Part shown: positions 1,291 to 30,750 of the stretch, piece by piece | Position numbering within the stretch: the stretch's first letter is position 1 | Layout of the letters: every line of letters starts with the position of its first letter | DNA from: Stramenopiles sp. TOSAG23-2 | Taxonomy: Eukaryota > Sar | Assembly (NCBI GenBank): GCA_900128395.1 | Contig: LT649326.1 | Location: 1-37,397, forward strand | Direction of reading: 5' to 3' | DNA: 37,397 nucleotides | Notes under the pieces: model-generated | The model's database searches: none | Seen by the model: the letters and a program-made list of their open reading frames with translations, nothing else | Told to the model about the DNA's origin: nothing | Position numbers and translations under genes: made by a program

Positions 1291-4200
1291 ATGGCGGATG
1301 AGAAAAGAAAAACATCTAGCAGTGCTTCAGTACAAGTTGCAGTACGAATGCGATGTTTTATACATGCATATGAAATTGATAAAAAAACGGGTGTTCCACA
1401 CCCACATGTGAAAAAAATAGTACATATGGATCCACCATCAACGGTAATTACACATCCAGACACAGGGAAGGAGCATACGTTTACATACGATTATAGTTAT
1501 GATTCCTCTGATCCTAAATCAGATAACTATGCATCACAAGAAACGGTTTGGAATGATTTAGGTACAGTTGTATTGGATAACGCGTGGGATGGATATAACG
1601 TTACTTTATTTGCATATGGTCAAACTGGTTCTGGTAAAAGTTATTCAATGACTGGTGGGAATACACCAGATTCGGCAGGTATCATGCCACGTGCTACACG
1701 TGAAATTTTCCGTCGTATAAGCGAAAACAAAGATCCAGAGTTGACATATTCCGTTGAAGTCTCTATGTTGGAAGTTTATATGGAAAAAATACATGATTTA
1801 TTTGATCCAAAAAATGGTGGTAAAAATGGCTTGAAACTACGTGAAAATCCGAATATAGGTGTATACGTTCAAGGTTTAGAAGCAAGATTGGTTAAAAGTT
1901 ACGATGAGATAACAAATTGGATGGAAATAGGTATATCCAATCGTACAAAAGCGTCTACTCAAATGAATGCAGATAGTTCACGTGCACATACTTTATTAGA
2001 AGTTACGGTGAAACAAACACGTTGTAAAAAAGGTGAGAAAAAAGGTCAAGTGAAAAAAAGTAAAATTAATTTAGTGGATCTTGCCGGTAGCGAACGTTTA
2101 AATAAAACAGGTGCATCTGGGAAAACGATGAAAGAGGGACAAAAAATTAATTTATCCTTAACTACATTAGGACGTGTTATTACCCAATTAGCTATAAATT
2201 CAGATGAAACAAAAAAAGCTAGTCCAGTACCATATCGTGAAAGTAAATTAACATATTTATTGAAAAATTCTTTAGGTGGGAATAGTAAAACAATTATGAT
2301 AGCAGCGCTTGCGCCTAGTAATGTAAATTACGATGAAACACTTGGTACGTTGCGTTATGCATCACGTGCGAAAAAGATTAAAAATAAAGCTGTTGTTAAT
2401 GAAGATAGTACGACTAAATTGGTAAATAATTTAAAAGCTGAAATTGATGCATTAAAAGCACAATTAATGGGAGGTAATAATAATAATAATAATAATAATA
2501 ATGGTGGTGGTGGTGGTAAAAATGCTGATGAAGAGCGTAAAAAATGGGATGAAGAGAGAGAGGCATTGTTAGCGAAATTGAAGGAAAGTGAACAATTAGC
2601 ACAACGTGCTTCTATGACAGATGATGAGAGAGCAAAAGAAACTGCATTAGCTGCACAAGATCAAGGCATGGCGGAATTAGTTGCACAACGAGAAAAAGCA
2701 AAGAATACACCATGTTTATTGAATTTAAGTGAAGATCCGCAGATGGATGGTCGAATTATACATTTCTTAGAATATAAAAAAGATATATCATTTGGACGTA
2801 AAGATGCAAATCCACAACCAGATATTATTTTAGCCGGTTTAAATATTGCAAAGTTGCAATGCATTATACATTGTGGAAAAAATGCTAAAGCTGGGTTTAA
2901 AATTTCTAATCCTAATGGATCGAAAACGTATGTAAATGGTATACCAGTGAAAAAAGGTGCAAACGTCGATTTGAAGCCACATGATCGTATTATATTTGGT
3001 AGTAGTAATATATATCGAATACAAATACCTGGTTCATTGTTAAAAAGTAAATTAGGAAGACCGGAACATGTTACATGGACCCATGCCATTGAGGAATTGA
3101 ATCAAGGTCAAATGGCCGCATTTTCCGAGCAACATCGAGCAGAACGAGAAGAAGCAGAGCGAATGAGGAAAGAAATGGAAACGAAATTGAGGGAGATGGA
3201 ACAGATGATAAACCAAGAACGGCAAAAGGGTGGTACGTAATCAATAACCAACCGTGAACCAACTTGCACCGTGTTTGTGAAGCTACCAACCTGCACCGTC
3301 TACAACTAATCTTGCACCAGCTTCTTGACACTCACACAACCAACCTGCACCGTGTTTGTGAAGCAACCAACCTGCACCGTCTACCACTAATCTTGCCCAG
3401 CTATATATATATATACATACTACATCATAAATATATATTTTTTTTTTTTGCTCCACCAATATATATGCTTCCAACCTCCCCGTATCACTCCACCAACCTC
3501 AGGCAGGTCGTATCGCTACCAACCTCAGGCAGGACTAACACATTATAATCCATCTATCTATATTTTATACAGGTACTCGAGCCGCTGAATTAGAGGCACA
3601 ATTGGAGGAGCAACGCGAAAGGGCAGAACGATTGCAGCGTAGAAAAGCAAAGGAAGCACAGCAAGGTACTCGAGCCGCTGAATTAGAGGCACAATTGGAG
3701 GAGCAACGCGAAAGGGCAGAACGATTGCAGCGTAGAAAAGCAAAGGAAGCACAGCAACGATCGTTGATGGATCAACAATTGTTAAAAGCAATTGGTATGG
3801 TAGAAGAAGCAAATTCAATAGCACTTGAATTGGACCAAGGCATGTGCTTTAGTATTAAATTACGCGTGAACCAATCGCAAGCTGTTAGGGAAGCTACGGA
3901 GGATGATTTCGTAGCTGAAAAAGAAGTACATATTAAAGTAGATTATGATAAAGTAAATGTGCCATCTGCCATGTGGGAATATGAATCAAAATTTGTCAAT
4001 CGTCTATATTCAATGCGCGAATTGTATCAAGATTATGTCGATGTTGGTCGTAACTTATCAATGATTATGGACAATCTTCCAGTAGAAGACAACCCATTTA
4101 TTGATGATGCGACAGATCAATCCATTGGCAAAGCATTGATATATTTAGAACCATTAATGTACTTAATGGATGTTGAGGAACGCACATCGATTTATGATTT

Positions 4201-4846
4201 TAAAGGAAAATCAATGGGTGATTTAAGTGTAGAAATACGAGTATATGCAAATGAGCAATGTACAAAACGATTTGGAGAAATTGAAATGAGCGATGGTGTT
4301 GAAGATGAATTAACCATGTTGGCAGGTAATACTATTTACATCGCGGTGTTTGTTGATAAAGCACAAGGTTTACCACCTGAATTAAGTCGTGATGTATATG
4401 TTAAATTTTCATTTTGGCCTGCAGAAGGAAATGCATATGAAATACCACGATGTAAGACAAAAACTATTAATCCTGTTTTTAACCATACAAAAGTATTTGC
4501 CATTCGTGTTACAGATGATTTTATTAAACATGTACAACAAACTGCATTAGAATTTGATGTGATGGGAAGTGGTGGTGATGATAATCATAATAATATCAAT
4601 ATGACACGAAATGGTATTGGTGGCAGTATGTCAGGTAATAATACCATGGCTGGTAATAAATATAATGAGGATGATAAGAAACGTATTGCAGAATTGGAAG
4701 CACAAGTTGCGGAAATGAAACGTCAAGAAGAAGAGATGAAAAAAATGCAAAATAAATTAATGTCTCACCCAGAAGCAAAAAAACATGTACAAGCAGCACT
4801 GGAAGTTGCTGGAGTTGATAATTCAAAAGTATGTGTTGTTATGTAA
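1291..4846 (+). CDS. Kinesin-3 family motor with FHA and C2-like domains and C-terminal CaaX box (two exons)
   Basis: Exons are 1291-3232 and 3573-4846; the joined product is about 1071 residues. The motor domain (residues ~13-370) shows the P-loop GQTGSGKS (110-117), switch I NADSSRAH (~227-233) and switch II VDLAGSE (~262-268). SSRAH replaces the usual SSRSH. A poly-Asn/Gly linker follows, then LLNLSEDP and an FHA domain (~475-580), the order typical of kinesin-3 (KIF1/Unc-104) vesicle motors. Exon 2 encodes a Glu/Arg/Gln coiled coil containing a perfect 31-residue duplication. It continues with a C2-like region (NTIYIAVFVDKAQGLP onward), a second coiled coil and the end SKVCVVM. CVVM fits a CaaX prenylation box. 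The splice joint G|GT is in phase; without splicing the frame ends at TAA 3238-3240, giving 649 residues. Cargo is unknown; membrane anchoring is inferred. The family assignment is confident and the gene structure is likely. Confidence 0.9.
3233..3572 (+). other. Intron of the kinesin gene
   Basis: The donor is G|GTACGT at 3232/3233 and the acceptor TTTTATACAG ends at 3572, 340 nt in all. The intron contains stops in the kinesin frame. Splicing joins the phase-1 G of exon 1 to GT of exon 2, giving an uninterrupted frame through GTRAAELEAQ. A pyrimidine-rich, A-interspersed stretch (3549-3570) precedes the acceptor. The intron interior is unusually repetitive. Confidence 0.75.
3257..3402 (+). 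repeat. Imperfect tandem repeat inside the kinesin intron
   Basis: A unit of about 66 bp beginning AACCAACYTGCACCGTG occurs at 3257-3322 and again at 3338-3402 (offset 81 bp) with only a few mismatches. Within each unit the word ACCAACCTGCACCGT recurs. Farther on (3491-3536) a shorter pair built on ACCAACCTCAGGCAGG occurs. The intron has therefore grown by local duplication. Confidence 0.8.
3572..3757 (+). repeat. Perfect 93-bp tandem duplication at the start of kinesin exon 2
   Basis: Bases 3572-3664 and 3665-3757 are identical by eye. Each encodes 31 residues (GTRAAELEAQ ... AKEAQQ), so the frame is kept and the coiled coil is lengthened by a multiple near four heptads. Both copies begin with GGTACTCGAG preceded by A, so both junctions read AG|GT. 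Confidence 0.9.
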
Positions 4847-5059: not shown

Positions 5060-5692
5060 TTACAATCCTGTTGTCTTTACAACTTTAGTTGCTATTAATC
5101 CAAGCATCCATTTAGGCGCAGGTAGACCAATTTGTACCATATTTTTAAATGCTTCCAATGACATACCTGAAAATATACCATTATTATCATCACCAGTTTT
5201 CACAATTAATGCATAGAAATCATTATTGTTTTTTCCAGAAACAGGTTGAAAACGCCATCCTATATGTGTATTCTTTCCGTTACAATCACTGCAAATTAAA
5301 ATTGACCAACGATAATTAACAAACCAACTATCCAAACCTTGTTTATCGTCAACTTCGATATCAATAACTTCATTTAAATTTGGTAGACTGGATTGCAATA
5401 CTATCTTAAATGGCAATTGCAAAGAACTAATACGTTCTGGCTGTTTAAATTGATAAATTGGTACGGTAAATTCAGCAATTTTCACTTTTTCCATTGATAA
5501 GAATGTATCTGGTTGCAATTGTGTTGGCGATACAATAGTATTTTTTGCTTGAAGAGCTTGTGCTGTACATAAACATTGACCATTATTCGAAGACATATGT
5601 GGATTTGGTATTGGTTTCACTGTACTAGCAGCGAATGTATTTGTGAAACATATTGTCGCAATGATATATAATATTATTGTTAAACGATTCAT
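5060..5692 (-). CDS. Secreted single-domain CULT (cereblon-type thalidomide-binding fold) protein
   Basis: 210 residues. The start NRLTIILYIIATICFTNTFA is a clear signal peptide with cleavage likely after ~21, so the product should be secreted or lumenal. The mature part matches the CULT domain. It has an SWF..Y.W block (W123, W129), then CSDC (C134, C137) and HIGWRF (W146), aligning with the cereblon C-terminal region in which three tryptophans form the glutarimide/uridine pocket and four cysteines hold zinc. C40 and C42 (CLC) would supply the first cysteine pair, with CxC rather than CxxC spacing. Stand-alone secreted CULT proteins are known in eukaryotes, with no established function. It diverges from CCT1 and converges on the kinesin. 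No cereblon LON domain is present. Identification is by motif only. Confidence 0.75.
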   Translation of the reverse strand: MNRLTIILYIIATICFTNTFAASTVKPIPNPHMSSNNGQCLCTAQALQAKNTIVSPTQLQPDTFLSMEKVKIAEFTVPIYQFKQPERISSLQLPFKIVLQSSLPNLNEVIDIEVDDKQGLDSWFVNYRWSILICSDCNGKNTHIGWRFQPVSGKNNNDFYALIVKTGDDNNGIFSGMSLEAFKNMVQIGLPAPKWMLGLIATKVVKTTGL

Positions 5693-15619: not shown

Positions 15620-16717
15620 TTAGCAATAACCTCGATTCCATCCCCTACTCTCTATTTCCTTTAATTGTGACTCCAATACACCTGTTAAATTTTCTGTATC
15701 AGCAAGTATTTGTTTTAATTCTAATAATACTTGTGGTCTGGAACGTTGTGATGGTCTTAAATTTTTTTGCTTTTCCTTATCACTCCCTTCACCTTTTGCC
15801 GCTGCAAACAAACCTTGCGCAATTGCATGTTTTTGTAACTTTGCATGTTCACGTTGAAATATTGCAGTTGATATAATACTTATATCTCCATCTTCCTCAA
15901 TTTTAATCTGTAAATTACCTTCAGCATCAAATATATGTTTGTATTTTTTATCTAAATTTAATACACGAGCGTATTTGGTTGCTTCTTGCGTACGTGAGAT
16001 TAAATCTTGTTGTATTAAACGTTCCTCTTCTGCCATTTGCATTGCAAAGTCTTGCGCTGCTTTTCTTCGTGCAGCTGCTCTACGACGTATATGATCACGT
16101 GAACTGATTGGTCTTTTTTTACTTTCCATTTGTATACGTGCCATGAAATCATTTGCATTTTGTCCAGTCATATTCATTCGAGCAACTAAATTTGCTTGTG
16201 CACTACCGGGCTTCGCATTACGTTTGCCACCCGGTGCAGACGATGGGCGGCCACTGCCGCGACGGCCACTGCGGTTGTTCCTGCGTCTATTATTCGCAGT
16301 TGGATAATGTAAATCATCTCTGCTCCTACTATCACTCATACTATTATTGTTATTACTGTTGTAAGTTGCAGCACTTTTTGGTCTTCGTCTATTACTATTA
16401 TTTTTTTTTGAAGCAGCCATGCGTGAACGTGACTCTTCGATGCGTTTTTGTTCTTGCCTTTCCTTGTAAAATTCACTAAAATTATCTGGATCAATCCCTG
16501 TCAATGGTTGTCCATCCAACATAACTGTATGTGATTTTGCCGTACGCCTTTGTCTTGTTCCACCAGCTGTATTTGGCCGTCTATCGTAATTTACATTAGC
16601 AGGTTTGAAACCTTGCATAATATTACCATTATCTACATATTGTTGTTGTTGCCCAGGAGGACGATTATGTCGAGTGACGACGGCACTCATCGGCCTTTGC
16701 TTTCTTCTACGTGGCAT
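15620..16717 (-). CDS. Basic protein with repeated RPxSA/TA motifs, function unknown
   Basis: 365 residues from the preferred ATG at 16717 (MPRRRKQRPMSAV). An in-frame ATG at 16807 would add 30 residues (MIRRDTKQYIYIIHTI...), but those codons look like AT-rich leader. The protein is strongly basic and Asn/Arg-rich. It repeats a short motif: RPMSA, RPNTAGG, RPKSAAT and RPSSAPGG. Such R-P-x-S/T-A words are frequent in ciliary/flagellar and microtubule-associated proteins, which is weak evidence. The second half is helical (RRRAAARRKAAQDFAMQMAEEERLI) and ends in a coiled-coil-like ELKQILADTENLTGVLESQL. No enzymatic motif is seen. It diverges from the MT-A70 gene and converges with the FHA-LRR gene across a spacer of ~298 bp. 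Confidence 0.75.
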   Translation of the reverse strand: MPRRRKQRPMSAVVTRHNRPPGQQQQYVDNGNIMQGFKPANVNYDRRPNTAGGTRQRRTAKSHTVMLDGQPLTGIDPDNFSEFYKERQEQKRIEESRSRMAASKKNNSNRRRPKSAATYNSNNNNSMSDSRSRDDLHYPTANNRRRNNRSGRRGSGRPSSAPGGKRNAKPGSAQANLVARMNMTGQNANDFMARIQMESKKRPISSRDHIRRRAAARRKAAQDFAMQMAEEERLIQQDLISRTQEATKYARVLNLDKKYKHIFDAEGNLQIKIEEDGDISIISTAIFQREHAKLQKHAIAQGLFAAAKGEGSDKEKQKNLRPSQRSRPQVLLELKQILADTENLTGVLESQLKEIESRGWNRGYC

Positions 16718-17285
16718 ATTGTCACTTGTTTGCGTATCTACGTATGTAAGTATGTATATGATTGTGTGTATAATATATATATATTGTTTTGTATCTCTTC
16801 TTATCATTTAATAATCAGAATCAAATAATATTAAATATATGAGGAACGAAAATTTTAACCGTCGTTGATGAGCACGCATGATTTGCACATTATTTGTTGG
16901 CCTTTTGTGTTTTTTTCCTCCTCCTGGTTTTAAAGCTTCTAGCCAAACCAACGTATAATATATGTACTTGGGAATTTAAAGTATACACAAGATATAGGAA
17001 TATCATTATACTCAATCCACCAAAAGCTGATATCCTCACACACTATTTTACAGCAATGATGTGCCGATATTAAATATGTTAATGTAGTAATATCATTATC
17101 CATCATCAATCTGGCGGTAAATTCCTAATTATATTGCATATTACTATCATTTTCAAAAAATATATAGATTTAGATGTACATGTAGAGAATAATAGAAAGA
17201 TATATATATACAAAGCATGATCTATATATACATATATACATAGAAATATACATATCATTATATCAACCAAAGCAGGAAAAAACAG
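16718..17285. promoter_or_regulatory. Divergent promoter region, RPxSA protein / MT-A70 methyltransferase
   Basis: 568 bases without a recognisable gene. It includes the AT-rich leader that could extend the minus-strand gene to 16807, a T-rich/GC patch (16895-16955) and TA repeats just before the methyltransferase ATG. No defined element is identified. Confidence 0.35.
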
Positions 17286-18524
17286 ATGGGGAAACGTTCG
17301 AAAGTAGTAGCAAAGAAAAGCAAAACAGATGAGGTACCCAAAAAAAAAGTAAAAACAAATGGTCACCATGCTGCTGAAAATGGTAGTAAAGATAGTGGCA
17401 ACAGTGATAATAGTAAAAGAGGAAGGGCAAAAAAAGATGACCGTAAAAACCCTAGACCTGAAGGCATAGATGCAGATTTATGGCCAGAAGAAGACGATTT
17501 TGTACAATCAGACCTTGCAAATATGAAAATTGTTCGATCGGTATTGATTAAACAGATGAAACGAATTGAACAAGAATTATTTCGTGAAGATCATAATAAT
17601 GAACTAGCTGGAATTCAAACCCAAGTTGAATCTCCAAGCAAAGGACCAATAACAAAACCAAACGATGCTGAAAAGGATACGGGAAATAAAAATAATAATA
17701 ATAATGACAAAGGTCAAAATGCCAGCAGTAGCAGTAGTAGTTCAACAACGACAACAACTACCACTACCACCACCACTACGGCCACGGCGGTGACGACAAC
17801 AACAGCAAACTCAAATGCTCCAACACCAGATTCAGTAAAAGAAAATAAAGATTCTACAACATCTAAATCGAAAACGGAGGATGACAACAAGAAAGAAGAT
17901 GATATGTATGATGAATGGAAACCACCACCATTTAGTGTACCAATTTGTACCGATGTACGTCATTTACCAGTACAGCGTTTGAAAGACCAAATGTTAAAAA
18001 CACGTGGTCAATTGTTCGATGTAATCATGATGGATCCACCATGGCAATTAGCAACTGCTAATCCAACACGTGGTGTAGCAATTGGTTATCAACAATTAGC
18101 TGATTTTCATATTAAAGAATTGCCTGTTCGTGAATTACAAACAGATGGTTTTATCTTTATTTGGGTAATTAATGCTAAATTTAGATTTGCATTGAGTTTG
18201 TTGGAATATTGGGGCTATGAATTAGTAGATGAAATTGTTTGGATAAAACAAACAGTAAATCGTCGAATGGCAAAATCACATGGATTTTATTTACAACATG
18301 CAAAAGAAACTTGTTTAGTTGGAAGGAAAGGAAAACATCCAAAGAATATGGTTGGTGGAATTGCTAGTGATGTGATTTATAGTATACGACGTGGTCAAAG
18401 TCAAAAACCTGAAGAGATTTACAAATATGTTGAGCAACTAGTACCAAATGGACATTATTTAGAAATATTTGGTAGAAGAAACAATTTACATGATTATTGG
18501 GTAACTGTTGGTAATGAATTGTAA
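17286..18524 (+). CDS. MT-A70 family N6-adenine methyltransferase, MTA1-like (candidate DNA 6mA enzyme)
   Basis: 412 residues. The C-terminal ~200 residues are an MT-A70 methyltransferase domain with the catalytic DPPW at about 250-253. It continues NPTRGVAIGYQQL, DGFIFIWVINAKFRF, GYELVDEIVWIKQTVN, HGFYLQHAKETCLVG, SQKPEEIYKYVEQL and LEIFGRRNNLHDYWVTVGNEL. METTL3 has DPPWDIHMELPYGTM and WLNHGKEHCLVG at the matching places. The NPTRGVAIGY and HGFYLQHAKE wording agrees with my recollection of the MTA1 clade, which in ciliates makes DNA 6mA at ApT together with MTA9 and accessory proteins. The N-terminal ~210 residues are Lys-rich (likely nuclear), with Asn, Ser and Thr homopolymers (12 Thr). 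Its partner is not in the window. MT-A70 membership is certain; the clade is likely. Confidence 0.92.
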   Translation: MGKRSKVVAKKSKTDEVPKKKVKTNGHHAAENGSKDSGNSDNSKRGRAKKDDRKNPRPEGIDADLWPEEDDFVQSDLANMKIVRSVLIKQMKRIEQELFREDHNNELAGIQTQVESPSKGPITKPNDAEKDTGNKNNNNNDKGQNASSSSSSSTTTTTTTTTTTTATAVTTTTANSNAPTPDSVKENKDSTTSKSKTEDDNKKEDDMYDEWKPPPFSVPICTDVRHLPVQRLKDQMLKTRGQLFDVIMMDPPWQLATANPTRGVAIGYQQLADFHIKELPVRELQTDGFIFIWVINAKFRFALSLLEYWGYELVDEIVWIKQTVNRRMAKSHGFYLQHAKETCLVGRKGKHPKNMVGGIASDVIYSIRRGQSQKPEEIYKYVEQLVPNGHYLEIFGRRNNLHDYWVTVGNEL

Positions 18525-20587: not shown

Positions 20588-22267
20588 ATGAATAACAATC
20601 CAATAATCATCAACAAAATACCATCTACATTATTTCAACAATTATTATCTGCAACATCAACGGTTGAACGTCAAGTAATATTAAAAAAATACAACGAGTT
20701 ATCATTATCAACACCAACAACATTAACAGAAATTACCCAATCAAAATATTTAAAATGGATGGACGATTTCATAGAATCAATGAATTCAGAAAATTTAAAT
20801 AAAATTGAAACATTATTAAAAACATTTAAAGATAATAGCAATGATGATGATAATAATAATAATAATAATACCACGTTGATGAATGCTGAAAATATACCAA
20901 AATATTTAATTGAAACAAAATTATTATCAGAAGAAAATAAAGATAAATTTTATAGTTTACTTGTATCTAGTTTTGAAAGACGTCAACATCAAATCGAATC
21001 ACTTTATATTGAAGTTGAAAATCAATTAAATTTATGGTTATCATTATGTAAAGAAAATGAAACATTATCATTTTTACTAAAAACTGCTTCAAAAAATAGT
21101 ATAAATAAATTGATTCAATTGATACAAGATAAAATTACGTCCTCCAATAATAATAATAATAATAATAATAACGATGATGATGTATTAAACGAAATCAAAG
21201 AAGAGGAAGAGCTGCAACAACAAGATACGGATATTATTATATATGATTTAATTAAAAATCATGGTGAAAAATATCAATTTTTAATTTATCACATCAATAT
21301 ATTAACATCTATATGCAACATGTATGTACAAATTCAAAATTATGATAAATCAATTGTATTGAAAATTAATGATATTTTACAAATATATCAAGACAAATTA
21401 ATTGAGAACCGTATGCTACACATGAATAATCTTGTCATTCAATCGATTTTATCGGAAGAATGGAGTCATTTTAAAGATCCAAGGGATAAATTTAAACGTT
21501 ATTCAAATGGTTTGGCAATGTATATTGTGCATATGTCTACATTATGCAATGAATTGAATGATTTGAAGGTATATTCCAATATTTTTATTCAGATTTTTGA
21601 AGCTACGTTTCATAAATTGACATTATTATATGTTCATTTAGTAAATGTTGTAAATCGTGCACGTGTAGTTCAATATCGTGTAGATATTTTATCCTTAATT
21701 TCAATTGGTTTGCATTTTTTATATAGTGATTATGGTTGCTCAATAACTAATAATATTAATAAAATGTTGAATAAATTAATGATAACATTAACATTATTTG
21801 TTGGTCCCGTTGAACCAATTATACAATATTTAAAATCAAAACCTAATAGTAACGACACAAATGTTACTGATGATAATAATGACATTAGCTTTTTACAACA
21901 AAATGATTTCAATAATATATTTGATATTGAATATATATCGATGGATCAACGATTCCAAAATAGACGAAATAGTAATCCTATTCAACTTGTACAAACAATA
22001 TTTTCCAAAGGTAAAAAAATAAAATTGGAAAATATAATGGAAACAATTGATTTAAATCATTCATTATGGTCAAAAACATTAATAGCTGCTATGGAACATA
22101 CGAGTGATAATTATATTAATCTTAGCAAGGCGGACAGCATCTTAATTGTTTCACGTAGGCATGAATTACAAGATATTGAATATCCACCTATGACAAAAGA
22201 TGATGAAATAGTGAAAAAAAAATTAGAGATGTATTTTAAAAGTATTGGTAATAATCAGACGATCTAA
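20588..22267 (+). CDS. Unknown helical protein with Asn-rich linkers
   Basis: 559 residues. I do not recognise the family. The sequence is almost entirely predicted helix, with blocks such as FYSLLVSSFERRQHQIESLY, YQFLIYHINILTSICNMYVQ and FEATFHKLTLLYVHLVNVVN. Asn/Asp homopolymer linkers lie near residues 78-96 and 180-200. There is no signal peptide, no clear membrane segment and no enzyme motif. An all-helical rod with many Leu/Ile and low-complexity linkers would suit a tethering or scaffold subunit, but this is only a guess. The frame is intact from an ATG preceded by an A-rich leader and ends in TAA close to the convergent Tim17-family gene. Confidence 0.8.
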   Translation: MNNNPIIINKIPSTLFQQLLSATSTVERQVILKKYNELSLSTPTTLTEITQSKYLKWMDDFIESMNSENLNKIETLLKTFKDNSNDDDNNNNNNTTLMNAENIPKYLIETKLLSEENKDKFYSLLVSSFERRQHQIESLYIEVENQLNLWLSLCKENETLSFLLKTASKNSINKLIQLIQDKITSSNNNNNNNNNDDDVLNEIKEEEELQQQDTDIIIYDLIKNHGEKYQFLIYHINILTSICNMYVQIQNYDKSIVLKINDILQIYQDKLIENRMLHMNNLVIQSILSEEWSHFKDPRDKFKRYSNGLAMYIVHMSTLCNELNDLKVYSNIFIQIFEATFHKLTLLYVHLVNVVNRARVVQYRVDILSLISIGLHFLYSDYGCSITNNINKMLNKLMITLTLFVGPVEPIIQYLKSKPNSNDTNVTDDNNDISFLQQNDFNNIFDIEYISMDQRFQNRRNSNPIQLVQTIFSKGKKIKLENIMETIDLNHSLWSKTLIAAMEHTSDNYINLSKADSILIVSRRHELQDIEYPPMTKDDEIVKKKLEMYFKSIGNNQTI

Positions 22268-29466: not shown

Positions 29467-30750
29467 TCAATCATCAAAAGATTTCAAATATTGTCGTTTT
29501 TGTTCAATAATTTTCTTTTTTTGTTCTATCCAACGATTTAATTTTAACAACATTTTATTTTGTATGATAATCATTTCTTGTGGATTGCGTCTTGTTGGAT
29601 CTACCATTTGTTCATGCCTTTGTATATTTCTAGCTACGATAGCGGCACGTGCAGCAGCAGCAGCTTTTTCATCCGCTTGTTGTTTTCTGAAATCAGCCAT
29701 TATTTTTCTTCTTTTTGCAGCTTGGTCTCGTTTAAACCGGCTCTCATCAATATTAGCAAATTGTTTACTAGAATTATTGGTATATTGGCTTCCACTATTA
29801 TTTTGCTTACTATCTGAAAACAGAGGCGAAGATGATTTAATATCATTGATTGGTGTATTAAATACAATTTCTGTAGTTGTATTTGTATTGCCCCAATCTA
29901 TTGTTTTCTCTGCCTTTTGTTTTTTCCCATTATTACTACTACCATCATCATTTATGCCAATGCTACTACTACTGCTATTATTATCATTCATACTTGGTAC
30001 ATTATTATTATCAGAAGCACGTGGTGGCAATGATGACGATTCCCCAGAAATAAACTTCGAACTAATTTTTAAACCATTTAAATTTAATATTACACTTTTT
30101 CGACCTTTCGATGGAAATAATTTAGACATTTGACGACATCGATGTTCTAATTTTATCGGTCGTATACGTTTATACATATTTGAAGGAATTGAACCAAGGT
30201 TATTCGATTCAATAGTATGTTTTGCACATATAAATTTTGTTGTGGACAATTCTAAAATAGCTCTTGGAATGCATTTTCGACAATATGCTGCCGTACATCG
30301 AAAGCATTTTAACAATTTTCCTTTATCATCATCTTCCGGTATTTTACAAGTTTGGCATTGATGCATTGGACAAATATATTTGCTAAAAAACTCATCTTCA
30401 TTTAAAGGTTCGGGTTTTTCATCCTCCCGCAAAGTTTTTAGAATACATTTTTTATGAAAACGATGTCCACAAATTTTATTACATTGAACGACTGATCTTT
30501 GTTTATCATGGGCGTATTCTTTACATATGAAACAACGATGTATCCCATGGGTGCAATCAAAACATGCCCAATATTCATTTTTATCATCAGATGGTCTTCC
30601 ATCACCAACTTCAATACAATCAGAATGATAACTTTTTAAACAATATCCATCACATGTTTTTAAATCATCAGTTGTTTCACATATTGCACATATATCATCT
30701 GCAAAATTATTCGTAATTTCTTGTGGCACGTCCATTGCTAATGTTGCCAT
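29467..30750 (-). CDS. PHD-finger array protein (NSD/EDM2-like), nuclear reader
   Basis: 427 residues. The first ~190 residues hold an array of Cys/His zinc fingers. CAICETTDDLKTCDGYCLKSYHSDC with W.CFDC (~21-66) is PHD 1. HRCFICKEYAHDKQRSVVQCN.ICGHRFHKKC (~71-105) and CPMHQCQTCK...CFRCTAAYCRKC (~125-165) are a second, extended set ending FICAKH. This order, with a CF.C start and CGHxFH, resembles the PHD arrays of NSD methyltransferases and plant EDM2, but there is no SET domain here. The middle is Ser/Asn-rich and disordered. The tail is a basic, Ala/Lys/Gln-rich helix (RFKRDQAAKRRKIMADFRKQ) that could bind nucleic acid or a partner. A chromatin-reader role is inferred from the fold. It diverges from the kinase gene. 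Confidence 0.8.
   Translation of the reverse strand: MATLAMDVPQEITNNFADDICAICETTDDLKTCDGYCLKSYHSDCIEVGDGRPSDDKNEYWACFDCTHGIHRCFICKEYAHDKQRSVVQCNKICGHRFHKKCILKTLREDEKPEPLNEDEFFSKYICPMHQCQTCKIPEDDDKGKLLKCFRCTAAYCRKCIPRAILELSTTKFICAKHTIESNNLGSIPSNMYKRIRPIKLEHRCRQMSKLFPSKGRKSVILNLNGLKISSKFISGESSSLPPRASDNNNVPSMNDNNSSSSSIGINDDGSSNNGKKQKAEKTIDWGNTNTTTEIVFNTPINDIKSSSPLFSDSKQNNSGSQYTNNSSKQFANIDESRFKRDQAAKRRKIMADFRKQQADEKAAAAARAAIVARNIQRHEQMVDPTRRNPQEMIIIQNKMLLKLNRWIEQKKKIIEQKRQYLKSFDD

What the first reader, a model, noticed from the sequence alone, without database searches (positions are those of the whole stretch)
17286..18524. MTA1-like MT-A70 protein: candidate DNA N6-adenine methyltransferase
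Seen: DPPW followed by NPTRGVAIGYQQL, DGFIFIWVINAK, HGFYLQHAKE and RRNNLHDYWVTVGNEL. Known: METTL3 has a different loop after DPPW (DIHMELPYGTM), and the MTA1 clade, described from ciliates, algae and early fungi, methylates DNA at ApT with MTA9 and small partners. Inference: this AT-rich protist may carry 6mA. The long homopolymer N-terminus is lineage-specific.
Basis: partly seen in the sequence, partly recalled or inferred. Interest (0 to 1): 0.75.

Follow-up and report, generated by a model that had tools for sequence, protein, structure and literature searches.

The report
DNA adenine methyltransferase of uncultured protist
This gene is a clear relative of the enzyme (MTA1/AMT1) that puts methyl marks on adenines in the DNA of ciliates and many other single-celled eukaryotes, and the same partial genome also encodes two of its three known partners, so this uncultured protist very probably marks its DNA in the same way.

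Summary
Observation and core interpretation hold. The 412-aa ORF at 17286-18524 is an MTA1/AMT1-type MT-A70 protein: PDB scores 285 bits to Tetrahymena MTA1, 123 to METTL3, 44 to METTL14. It has the RGVAI loop that human METTL3 and METTL14 lack, DPPW, nine of nine SAM contacts and the YLQH loop that binds MTA9. My small tree does not by itself separate MTA1 from METTL3/METTL14. The same incomplete assembly encodes an MTA9-like protein (6.8e-16) and p1 (9.5e-38). p2 was not found; 6mA cannot be tested here. The homopolymers form a linker between a predicted helix and the catalytic domain. This is a new member of a known kind: AMT1 is reported as ancestral to eukaryotes (PMC12695648). Less expected: p1 ends in a weak Tudor-like stretch, and the MTA9-like protein keeps DPPW where Tetrahymena MTA9 has NALW. 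Not seeing METTL3, METTL14 or METTL4 says little, since only 7 proteasome and at most 2 CCT loci were found (14 and 8 expected, recalled).

The parts
17286..18524 (+). MTA1/AMT1-type MT-A70 gene, one open frame of 412 aa
17511..17630 (+). predicted N-terminal helix (residues 76-115), candidate for the MTA1 'helical arm' that holds p1 and p2
   Evidence: AF2 helix, block pLDDT 72-92 up to residue 110, then 57; hydrophobic in register with Tetrahymena L139/L142/I146/I150/Y153 (M80/V83/L87/M91/I94), but 195 of 2000 shuffles score as high, so not proven by sequence
17637..17900 (+). low-complexity Asn/Ser/Thr/Lys linker (residues 118-205), fast-evolving, low-confidence in the model
17901..18521 (+). 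MT-A70 methyltransferase domain (residues 206-412)
18033..18044 (+). catalytic DPPW motif (residues 250-253)
   Evidence: the same in 120 of 120 listed homologs
18063..18083 (+). PTRGVAI loop (residues 260-266), present in Tetrahymena MTA1 (PSRGVAI), absent in human METTL3 and METTL14
18288..18299 (+). YLQH (residues 335-338), the loop through which Tetrahymena MTA1 binds MTA9 (Y294-H297; passages of PMC9174199)
   Evidence: the same in 120 of 120 listed homologs

Best explanation
The gene encodes the catalytic subunit (MTA1, also AMT1) of an MTA1c-type DNA N6-adenine methyltransferase in an uncultured stramenopile. The MT-A70 domain binds SAM and transfers the methyl group through DPPW (inferred from conserved residues). 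It pairs through the YLQH loop with the MTA9/AMT6-7-like protein on contig C375 (pairing inferred; the partner gene is shown). Its N-terminal helix is expected to hold p1, found on contig C429, and p2, not found. The complex most likely writes symmetric 6mA at ApT just after transcription starts of active genes, as in other AMT1-encoding eukaryotes (inferred from the family; no 6mA data here). The homopolymer linker is probably a flexible tether of variable length. A Tudor-like stretch in p1 may help read methylated histones (inferred, weak).
For: PDB sequence match to MTA1 9e-84, METTL3 1.9e-34, METTL14 1.6e-10. 53 against 11 of 103 discriminating columns. 61 / 38 / 28% identity to MTA1 / METTL3 / METTL14. 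Nine of nine SAM-contact sites tested, four of four DPPW and four of four YLQH positions are identical to the Tetrahymena-type row. Foldseek: the 16 best-ranked chains are MTA1, best 5.4e-30; the best METTL3 chain is rank 17 at 1.6e-21. MTA9-like partner: 6.8e-16 to MTA9, 0.0011 to MTA1, no METTL14 at E<=1. p1: 9.5e-38. Among 18 species profiled, robust 6mA was reported only with AMT1 (PMC12695648, abstract and section 7).
Against: p2, which opens the SAM pocket of Tetrahymena MTA1 (PMC9174199, passages), was not found. In the tree the 100/99 branch parts MTA1 plus METTL3/METTL14 from the MTA9-like rows; METTL3+METTL14 (89/90) hang from the unresolved base of the MTA1 rows, so no supported branch parts MTA1 from METTL3/METTL14. 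AU tests do not reject query+METTL3+METTL14 (p 0.239), query+METTL3 (p 0.254), the query outside the other MTA1 rows (p 0.243) or query+P0004+P0005 outside the rest (p 0.248). Three of eight p2-contact positions differ (D174 to P, Q195 to M, H198 to T) and the MTA9-stacking Y258 is F. The N-terminal helix is not significant by direct sequence comparison. No methylation data.
Confidence: 0.88

Rival explanations
1. It is a METTL3-type mRNA m6A methyltransferase (the name several databases give to its homologs).
For: Same Pfam family and DPPW; METTL3 is the second-best PDB family at 123 bits; some homologs are labelled 'mRNA m(6)A methyltransferase'. The tree and the AU tests, with one METTL3 row, do not exclude METTL3 joining beside it.
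Against: 38% identity to METTL3 against 61% to MTA1; loop, YLQH and 53-to-11 columns follow MTA1; no zf-CCCH domain in the Pfam scans; p1 and an MTA9-like protein are present in the assembly, and no METTL14 was seen (partial assembly).
Confidence: 0.05
2. It is MTA1 by descent, but the complex is idle or has another substrate in this lineage, so there is little 6mA.
For: p2 not found; no 6mA data. Two Naegleria species encode AMT1 yet show detectable methylation in only 3% of genes (PMC12695648, section 7). A 2026 review says it is unclear whether MTA1c stays active in lineages with low 6mA (PMC13297926, passages).
Against: The SAM and catalytic residues tested are kept; the MTase domain keeps 202 of 207 residues in P0003 while the linker diverges; the assembly is incomplete, so a missing p2 says little.
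Confidence: 0.07

Closest known systems
MTA1/AMT1 of Tetrahymena thermophila (PDB 7YI8, 7F4L, 8XYL and others)
   Same: MT-A70 domain 61% identical; DPPW, SAM contacts, RGVAI loop, YLQH interface loop; basic patch K321/R327/K330 against K/K/K; a helix before the domain
   Different: 146 residues from the helix register to DPPW against 46 in the T. utriculariae row (register not significant); homopolymer tracts; F for Y258; three of eight p2-contact positions differ
MTA1c complex (MTA1-MTA9-p1-p2)
   Same: MTA1, an MTA9-like and a p1 protein are encoded in one partial genome
   Different: p2 not found; the MTA9-like protein keeps DPPW where Tetrahymena MTA9 has NALW (PMC9852454, passages); p1 ends in a Tudor-like stretch
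METTL3 (human)
   Same: fold, DPPW, SAM-binding loops
   Different: 38% identity; lacks the RGVAI insertion and YLQH; METTL3 has CCCH zinc fingers (PMC9174199, passages), none found here
MTA1-type proteins with an N-terminal PHD finger (P0107 Blastocystis, P0021 unnamed)
   Same: same catalytic family; a chromatin-reader-type domain tied to the 6mA writer
   Different: there the reader domain sits in MTA1 itself; here a Tudor-like stretch sits in p1

Membership tests
MTA1/AMT1 | MT-A70 domain with intact DPPW | tested here: met
   Pfam 127.7 bits, cut-off 23.9; DPPW at 250-253
MTA1/AMT1 | closer in sequence to MTA1 than to METTL3 or METTL14 | tested here: met
   285 / 123 / 44 bits; 61 / 38 / 28% identity; 53 against 11 of 103 columns
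MTA1/AMT1 | (T/S)RGVAI loop after DPPW | tested here: met
   (compared with one MTA1, one METTL3, one METTL14)
MTA1/AMT1 | SAM-contact residues D182, V183, S332, K334, R357, N359, N360, N370, E371 (positions from passages of PMC9852454 and PMC9174199; numbering by the 372-aa T. utriculariae row P0095) | tested here: met
   9 of 9 identical
MTA1/AMT1 | YLQH interface loop to MTA9 | tested here: met
   residues 335-338
MTA1/AMT1 | N-terminal helical arm for p1 and p2 | tested here: inconclusive
   AF2 helix 76-115, but 195 of 2000 shuffles match the direct register score
MTA1/AMT1 | falls in the MTA1 clade of a maximum-likelihood tree | tested here: inconclusive
   query with P0004 and P0005 at 99/93; the 100/99 branch parts 34 MTA1 rows plus METTL3/METTL14 from 6 MTA9-like rows, and METTL3+METTL14 (89/90) join at the unresolved base of the MTA1 rows; four AU tests p 0.239-0.254; no METTL4, one METTL3 and one METTL14 row
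MTA1c complex | MTA9/AMT6-7 partner gene in the genome | tested here: met
   C375, L010:1315-2442:-, E 6.8e-16 to MTA9
MTA1c complex | p1 gene in the genome | tested here: met
   C429 frame, E 9.5e-38 to p1
MTA1c complex | p2 gene in the genome | tested here: inconclusive
   no p2 sequence to search with; 2 homeodomain and 61 Myb hits listed, of which 4 proteins were compared with the PDB: apart from p1 itself none matched a chain named as a part of MTA1c; assembly partial
MTA1c complex | 6mA at ApT in genomic DNA | not testable with these tools
   needs native long-read data
METTL3 | nearest relative is METTL3 and CCCH zinc fingers present | tested here: not met
METTL4 | nearest relative is METTL4 | not tested
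   no METTL4 reference was in hand; none is named among the 35 PDB sequences at E<=0.01, but whether the PDB copy holds one was not checked
MTA9/AMT6-7 (C375 protein) | eroded catalytic motif as in Tetrahymena (NALW) | tested here: not met
   own protein and P0122 read MDPPWK; this erosion may be a Tetrahymena trait rather than a family one

The most novel reading that the evidence does not exclude
In this lineage the 6mA writer complex carries its own histone-methyl reader: the p1 subunit ends in a Tudor domain, parallel to the PHD finger reported in ichthyosporean p1 and to the PHD finger in Blastocystis-type MTA1 seen here. That would mean that readers of methylated histones were joined to the 6mA writer several times independently, and that histone marks guide adenine methylation directly. 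The MTA9-like partner with intact DPPW might also keep a second, at least partly working, active site.
Probability: 0.3. Interest if true: 0.6.

Novelty: new member of a known kind. Interest (0 to 1): 0.4.

Why it matters
It extends the AMT1 6mA pathway, with two of its three known partners, to an uncultured stramenopile (lineage inferred) with a partial genome, which fits the view that 6mA linked to transcription is ancestral in eukaryotes.

Tried and rejected
METTL3 assignment: rejected on scores, loop and discriminating columns, not by the tree. Absence of METTL3, METTL14, METTL4 or YTH as evidence: rejected, because PF00227 gave 7 hits where 14 proteasome genes are expected and PF00118 gave one full and one weak hit where 8 CCT genes are expected (expected numbers recalled; six-frame search that ignores introns), and the YTH search rang in no control either. 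p1/p2 by homeodomain: L011 (Myb plus homeodomain) matched REST corepressor and homeodomain chains, not p1/p2; the L012 exon matched mostly homeodomain chains, not p1/p2; L052 (Myb plus HMG-like) did not match p1. Match of the p1 leucine helix (Tetrahymena p1 residues 161-184) to own p1: 958 of 2000 shuffles as high, so no evidence. AF2 of the MTA9-like protein: mean pLDDT 40.5 with 7 sequences, not used. Full-length MAFFT set the Tetrahymena helix against the query's linker, so the helix was compared by a gap-free slide instead. P0125 was left out of the tree because it lacks the DPPW region. AU tests left the attachment of the outgroups unresolved.

Full report
What is there. Pfam MT-A70 covers residues 244-411 at 127.7 bits. 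Neighbouring frames look like ordinary eukaryotic genes: kinesin, TCP-1, archease, ribosomal protein S6e, a PHD protein and a protein kinase among others. Its TCP-1 alpha is 95% identical to an unnamed EukProt protein; among the 120 listed hits that name an organism, the best is one labelled Quercus suber (68%), followed by oomycetes at about 70-73%. I read this as an uncultured stramenopile, possibly a marine MAST lineage. That is inference; published MAST co-assemblies run from 9.13 to 47.80 Mb at 46% mean completeness (PMC8163842, passages).

Which family. Against PDB sequences the protein scores 285 bits with Tetrahymena MTA1, 123 with METTL3, 44 with METTL14 and 19.5 with the MTA9 of entry 7f4s. 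Of 899 candidates in the large protein database 765 pass E 1e-3; the best 120 were listed and all 120 carry DPPW and YLQH. They were retrieved with this protein, so they are no independent test. Independent columns: of 103 ungapped positions where Tetrahymena MTA1 and human METTL3 differ, the protein sides with MTA1 at 53, METTL3 at 11, neither at 39, and it has the RGVAI insertion that METTL3 and METTL14 lack.

The tree. It used 42 rows: 34 MTA1 (32 chosen of the 120 listed, plus Tetrahymena and the query), 6 MTA9-like (P0125 left out), one METTL3 and one METTL14. A 100/99 branch parts the MTA9-like rows from all others. The query sits with P0004 and P0005 at 99/93. METTL3 and METTL14 pair at 89/90 on a branch of 1.66 that joins at the unresolved base of the MTA1 rows, so no supported branch parts MTA1 from METTL3/METTL14. 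By path the query is 0.25-0.78 from its five nearest rows, all MTA1. Results against: AU tests do not reject query+METTL3+METTL14 (p 0.239), query+METTL3 (p 0.254), the query outside all other MTA1 rows (p 0.243), or query, P0004 and P0005 outside the rest (p 0.248), at log-likelihood costs of 1.5-5.6. The assignment therefore rests on similarity and diagnostic residues, not on the tree.

Working parts. Contact residues named in two structure papers (PMC9852454 and PMC9174199, passages seen) were mapped through a 372-aa Tetrahymena-type row. DPPW (4 of 4), SAM contacts (9 of 9) and YLQH (4 of 4) are identical. The basic patch is K, R, K against K, K, K. Y258 is F, as in 7 of 120 homologs. Of 8 p2-contact positions, 5 are identical and D174, Q195 and H198 differ. 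AF2 gives a mostly confident catalytic domain, a helix at 76-115 and a low-confidence linker, mean pLDDT 69.2. Foldseek ranks MTA1 chains 1 to 16 and the first METTL3 chain at 17. The helix is a fair candidate for the arm that holds p1 and p2, but sequence alone does not prove it (195 of 2000 shuffles as good). The homopolymers lie in the linker after that helix. Of 118 rows that could be scored out of 121, 8 (the query among them) have as long a distance from helix to DPPW, though the helix register is unsure in distant rows.

Partners in the same genome. The MT-A70 model finds two loci at E<=0.1: the window gene and C375. The C375 protein matches MTA9 at 6.8e-16, AMT7 at 6.9e-16 and the chain 8xyl_B ('Methyltransferase MT, putative', an MTA9-type chain by my reading) at 1.7e-12, MTA1 only at 0.0011, and no METTL14 at E<=1. 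Its frame runs to the contig end and its nearest relative P0122 is 640 aa at 67% identity, so its N-terminus is probably missing. It reads MDPPWK where Tetrahymena MTA9 is reported to have NALW. Of six relatives, P0122 and P0127 have DPPW, P0126 DPPY, P0123 SPPW, P0124 TPPW, and P0125 starts too late to show it. The stretch that I read as matching the MTA1 RRNN loop differs (ASPWSQKKGW), so I expect no SAM binding; untested.

p1. A 345-aa Myb-type frame on C429 matches PDB p1 at 9.5e-38 over residues 18-155. A second copy lies 5162 bases on; all 522 differences in the 2063 compared bases lie at or before position 3098, and the frame starts at 3214, so the two frames are the same. That may be a tandem duplication or an assembly artefact. 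The whole frame gives Tudor_3 at 0.0018; the C-terminal piece cut out gives 1.4e-4, 22.1 bits, below the curated cut-off of 25.8. In the PDB the piece matches 2ldm (2e-4), 3p8d (3.3e-4) and 3qii, named PHD finger protein 20 (5.3e-4); I recall all three as PHF20 Tudor chains. Designed repeat proteins scored higher there by summing many weak repeats. The Tudor call is suggestive only. p2 was not found.

What cannot be said. METTL3, METTL14, METTL4 and YTH were not seen, but the assembly shows only 7 proteasome and at most 2 CCT loci, against 14 and 8 expected (recalled). 6mA cannot be read from the assembly.

Against the literature. Nat Genet 2025 (PMC12695648; [quoted passage not shown] It includes stramenopiles (Aurantiochytrium) and says p1 has a PHD domain in ichthyosporeans but lacks one in most eukaryotes. 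So the window gene is an expected new member. A search for 6mA plus MT-A70 plus 'marine stramenopiles' found 0 papers; one for any three of AMTP1, Tudor, 6mA and H3K4me3 found 12, and the 8 listed all lacked AMTP1 (listing only). These searches cover open-licence PMC papers only.

Noticed in passing
G000 C429, L046 and L047 (p1 frame at C429:3214-4251 and a second copy 5162 bases on): p1 ortholog with a C-terminal Tudor-like stretch, present as two identical frames on one contig
   Followed up: partly
P0107 (Blastocystis) and P0021: MTA1-type proteins with an N-terminal PHD finger above the Pfam cut-off
   Followed up: partly
L010:1315-2442:- and P0122: MTA9-like proteins that keep DPPW, unlike Tetrahymena MTA9 (NALW)
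   Followed up: partly
L060:1486-2676:-, L061:1426-2742:+, L062:865-3516:-: three C5 cytosine methyltransferase loci in the same genome; L060 and L061 hold PPCQPxTR, which I recall as typical of the tRNA enzyme Dnmt2; L062 is longer and different
   Followed up: no
L043, L048 and other loci: some frames in this genome seem to combine C2H2-like fingers with single Myb repeats, perhaps a lineage-specific expansion
   Followed up: no
window 29467-30750 (-): 427-aa protein with PHD fingers of the NSD type
   Followed up: no
window 1291-3240 and 3602-4846 (+): kinesin motor with FHA domain, then a separate frame with a C2 domain and a KIF1B match below its cut-off: perhaps one KIF1-type kinesin gene split by an intron or a frame break
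   Followed up: no
window 5060-5692 (-), 15620-16807 (-) and 20588-22267 (+): 210-, 395- and 559-aa frames without any Pfam family over its cut-off
   Followed up: no
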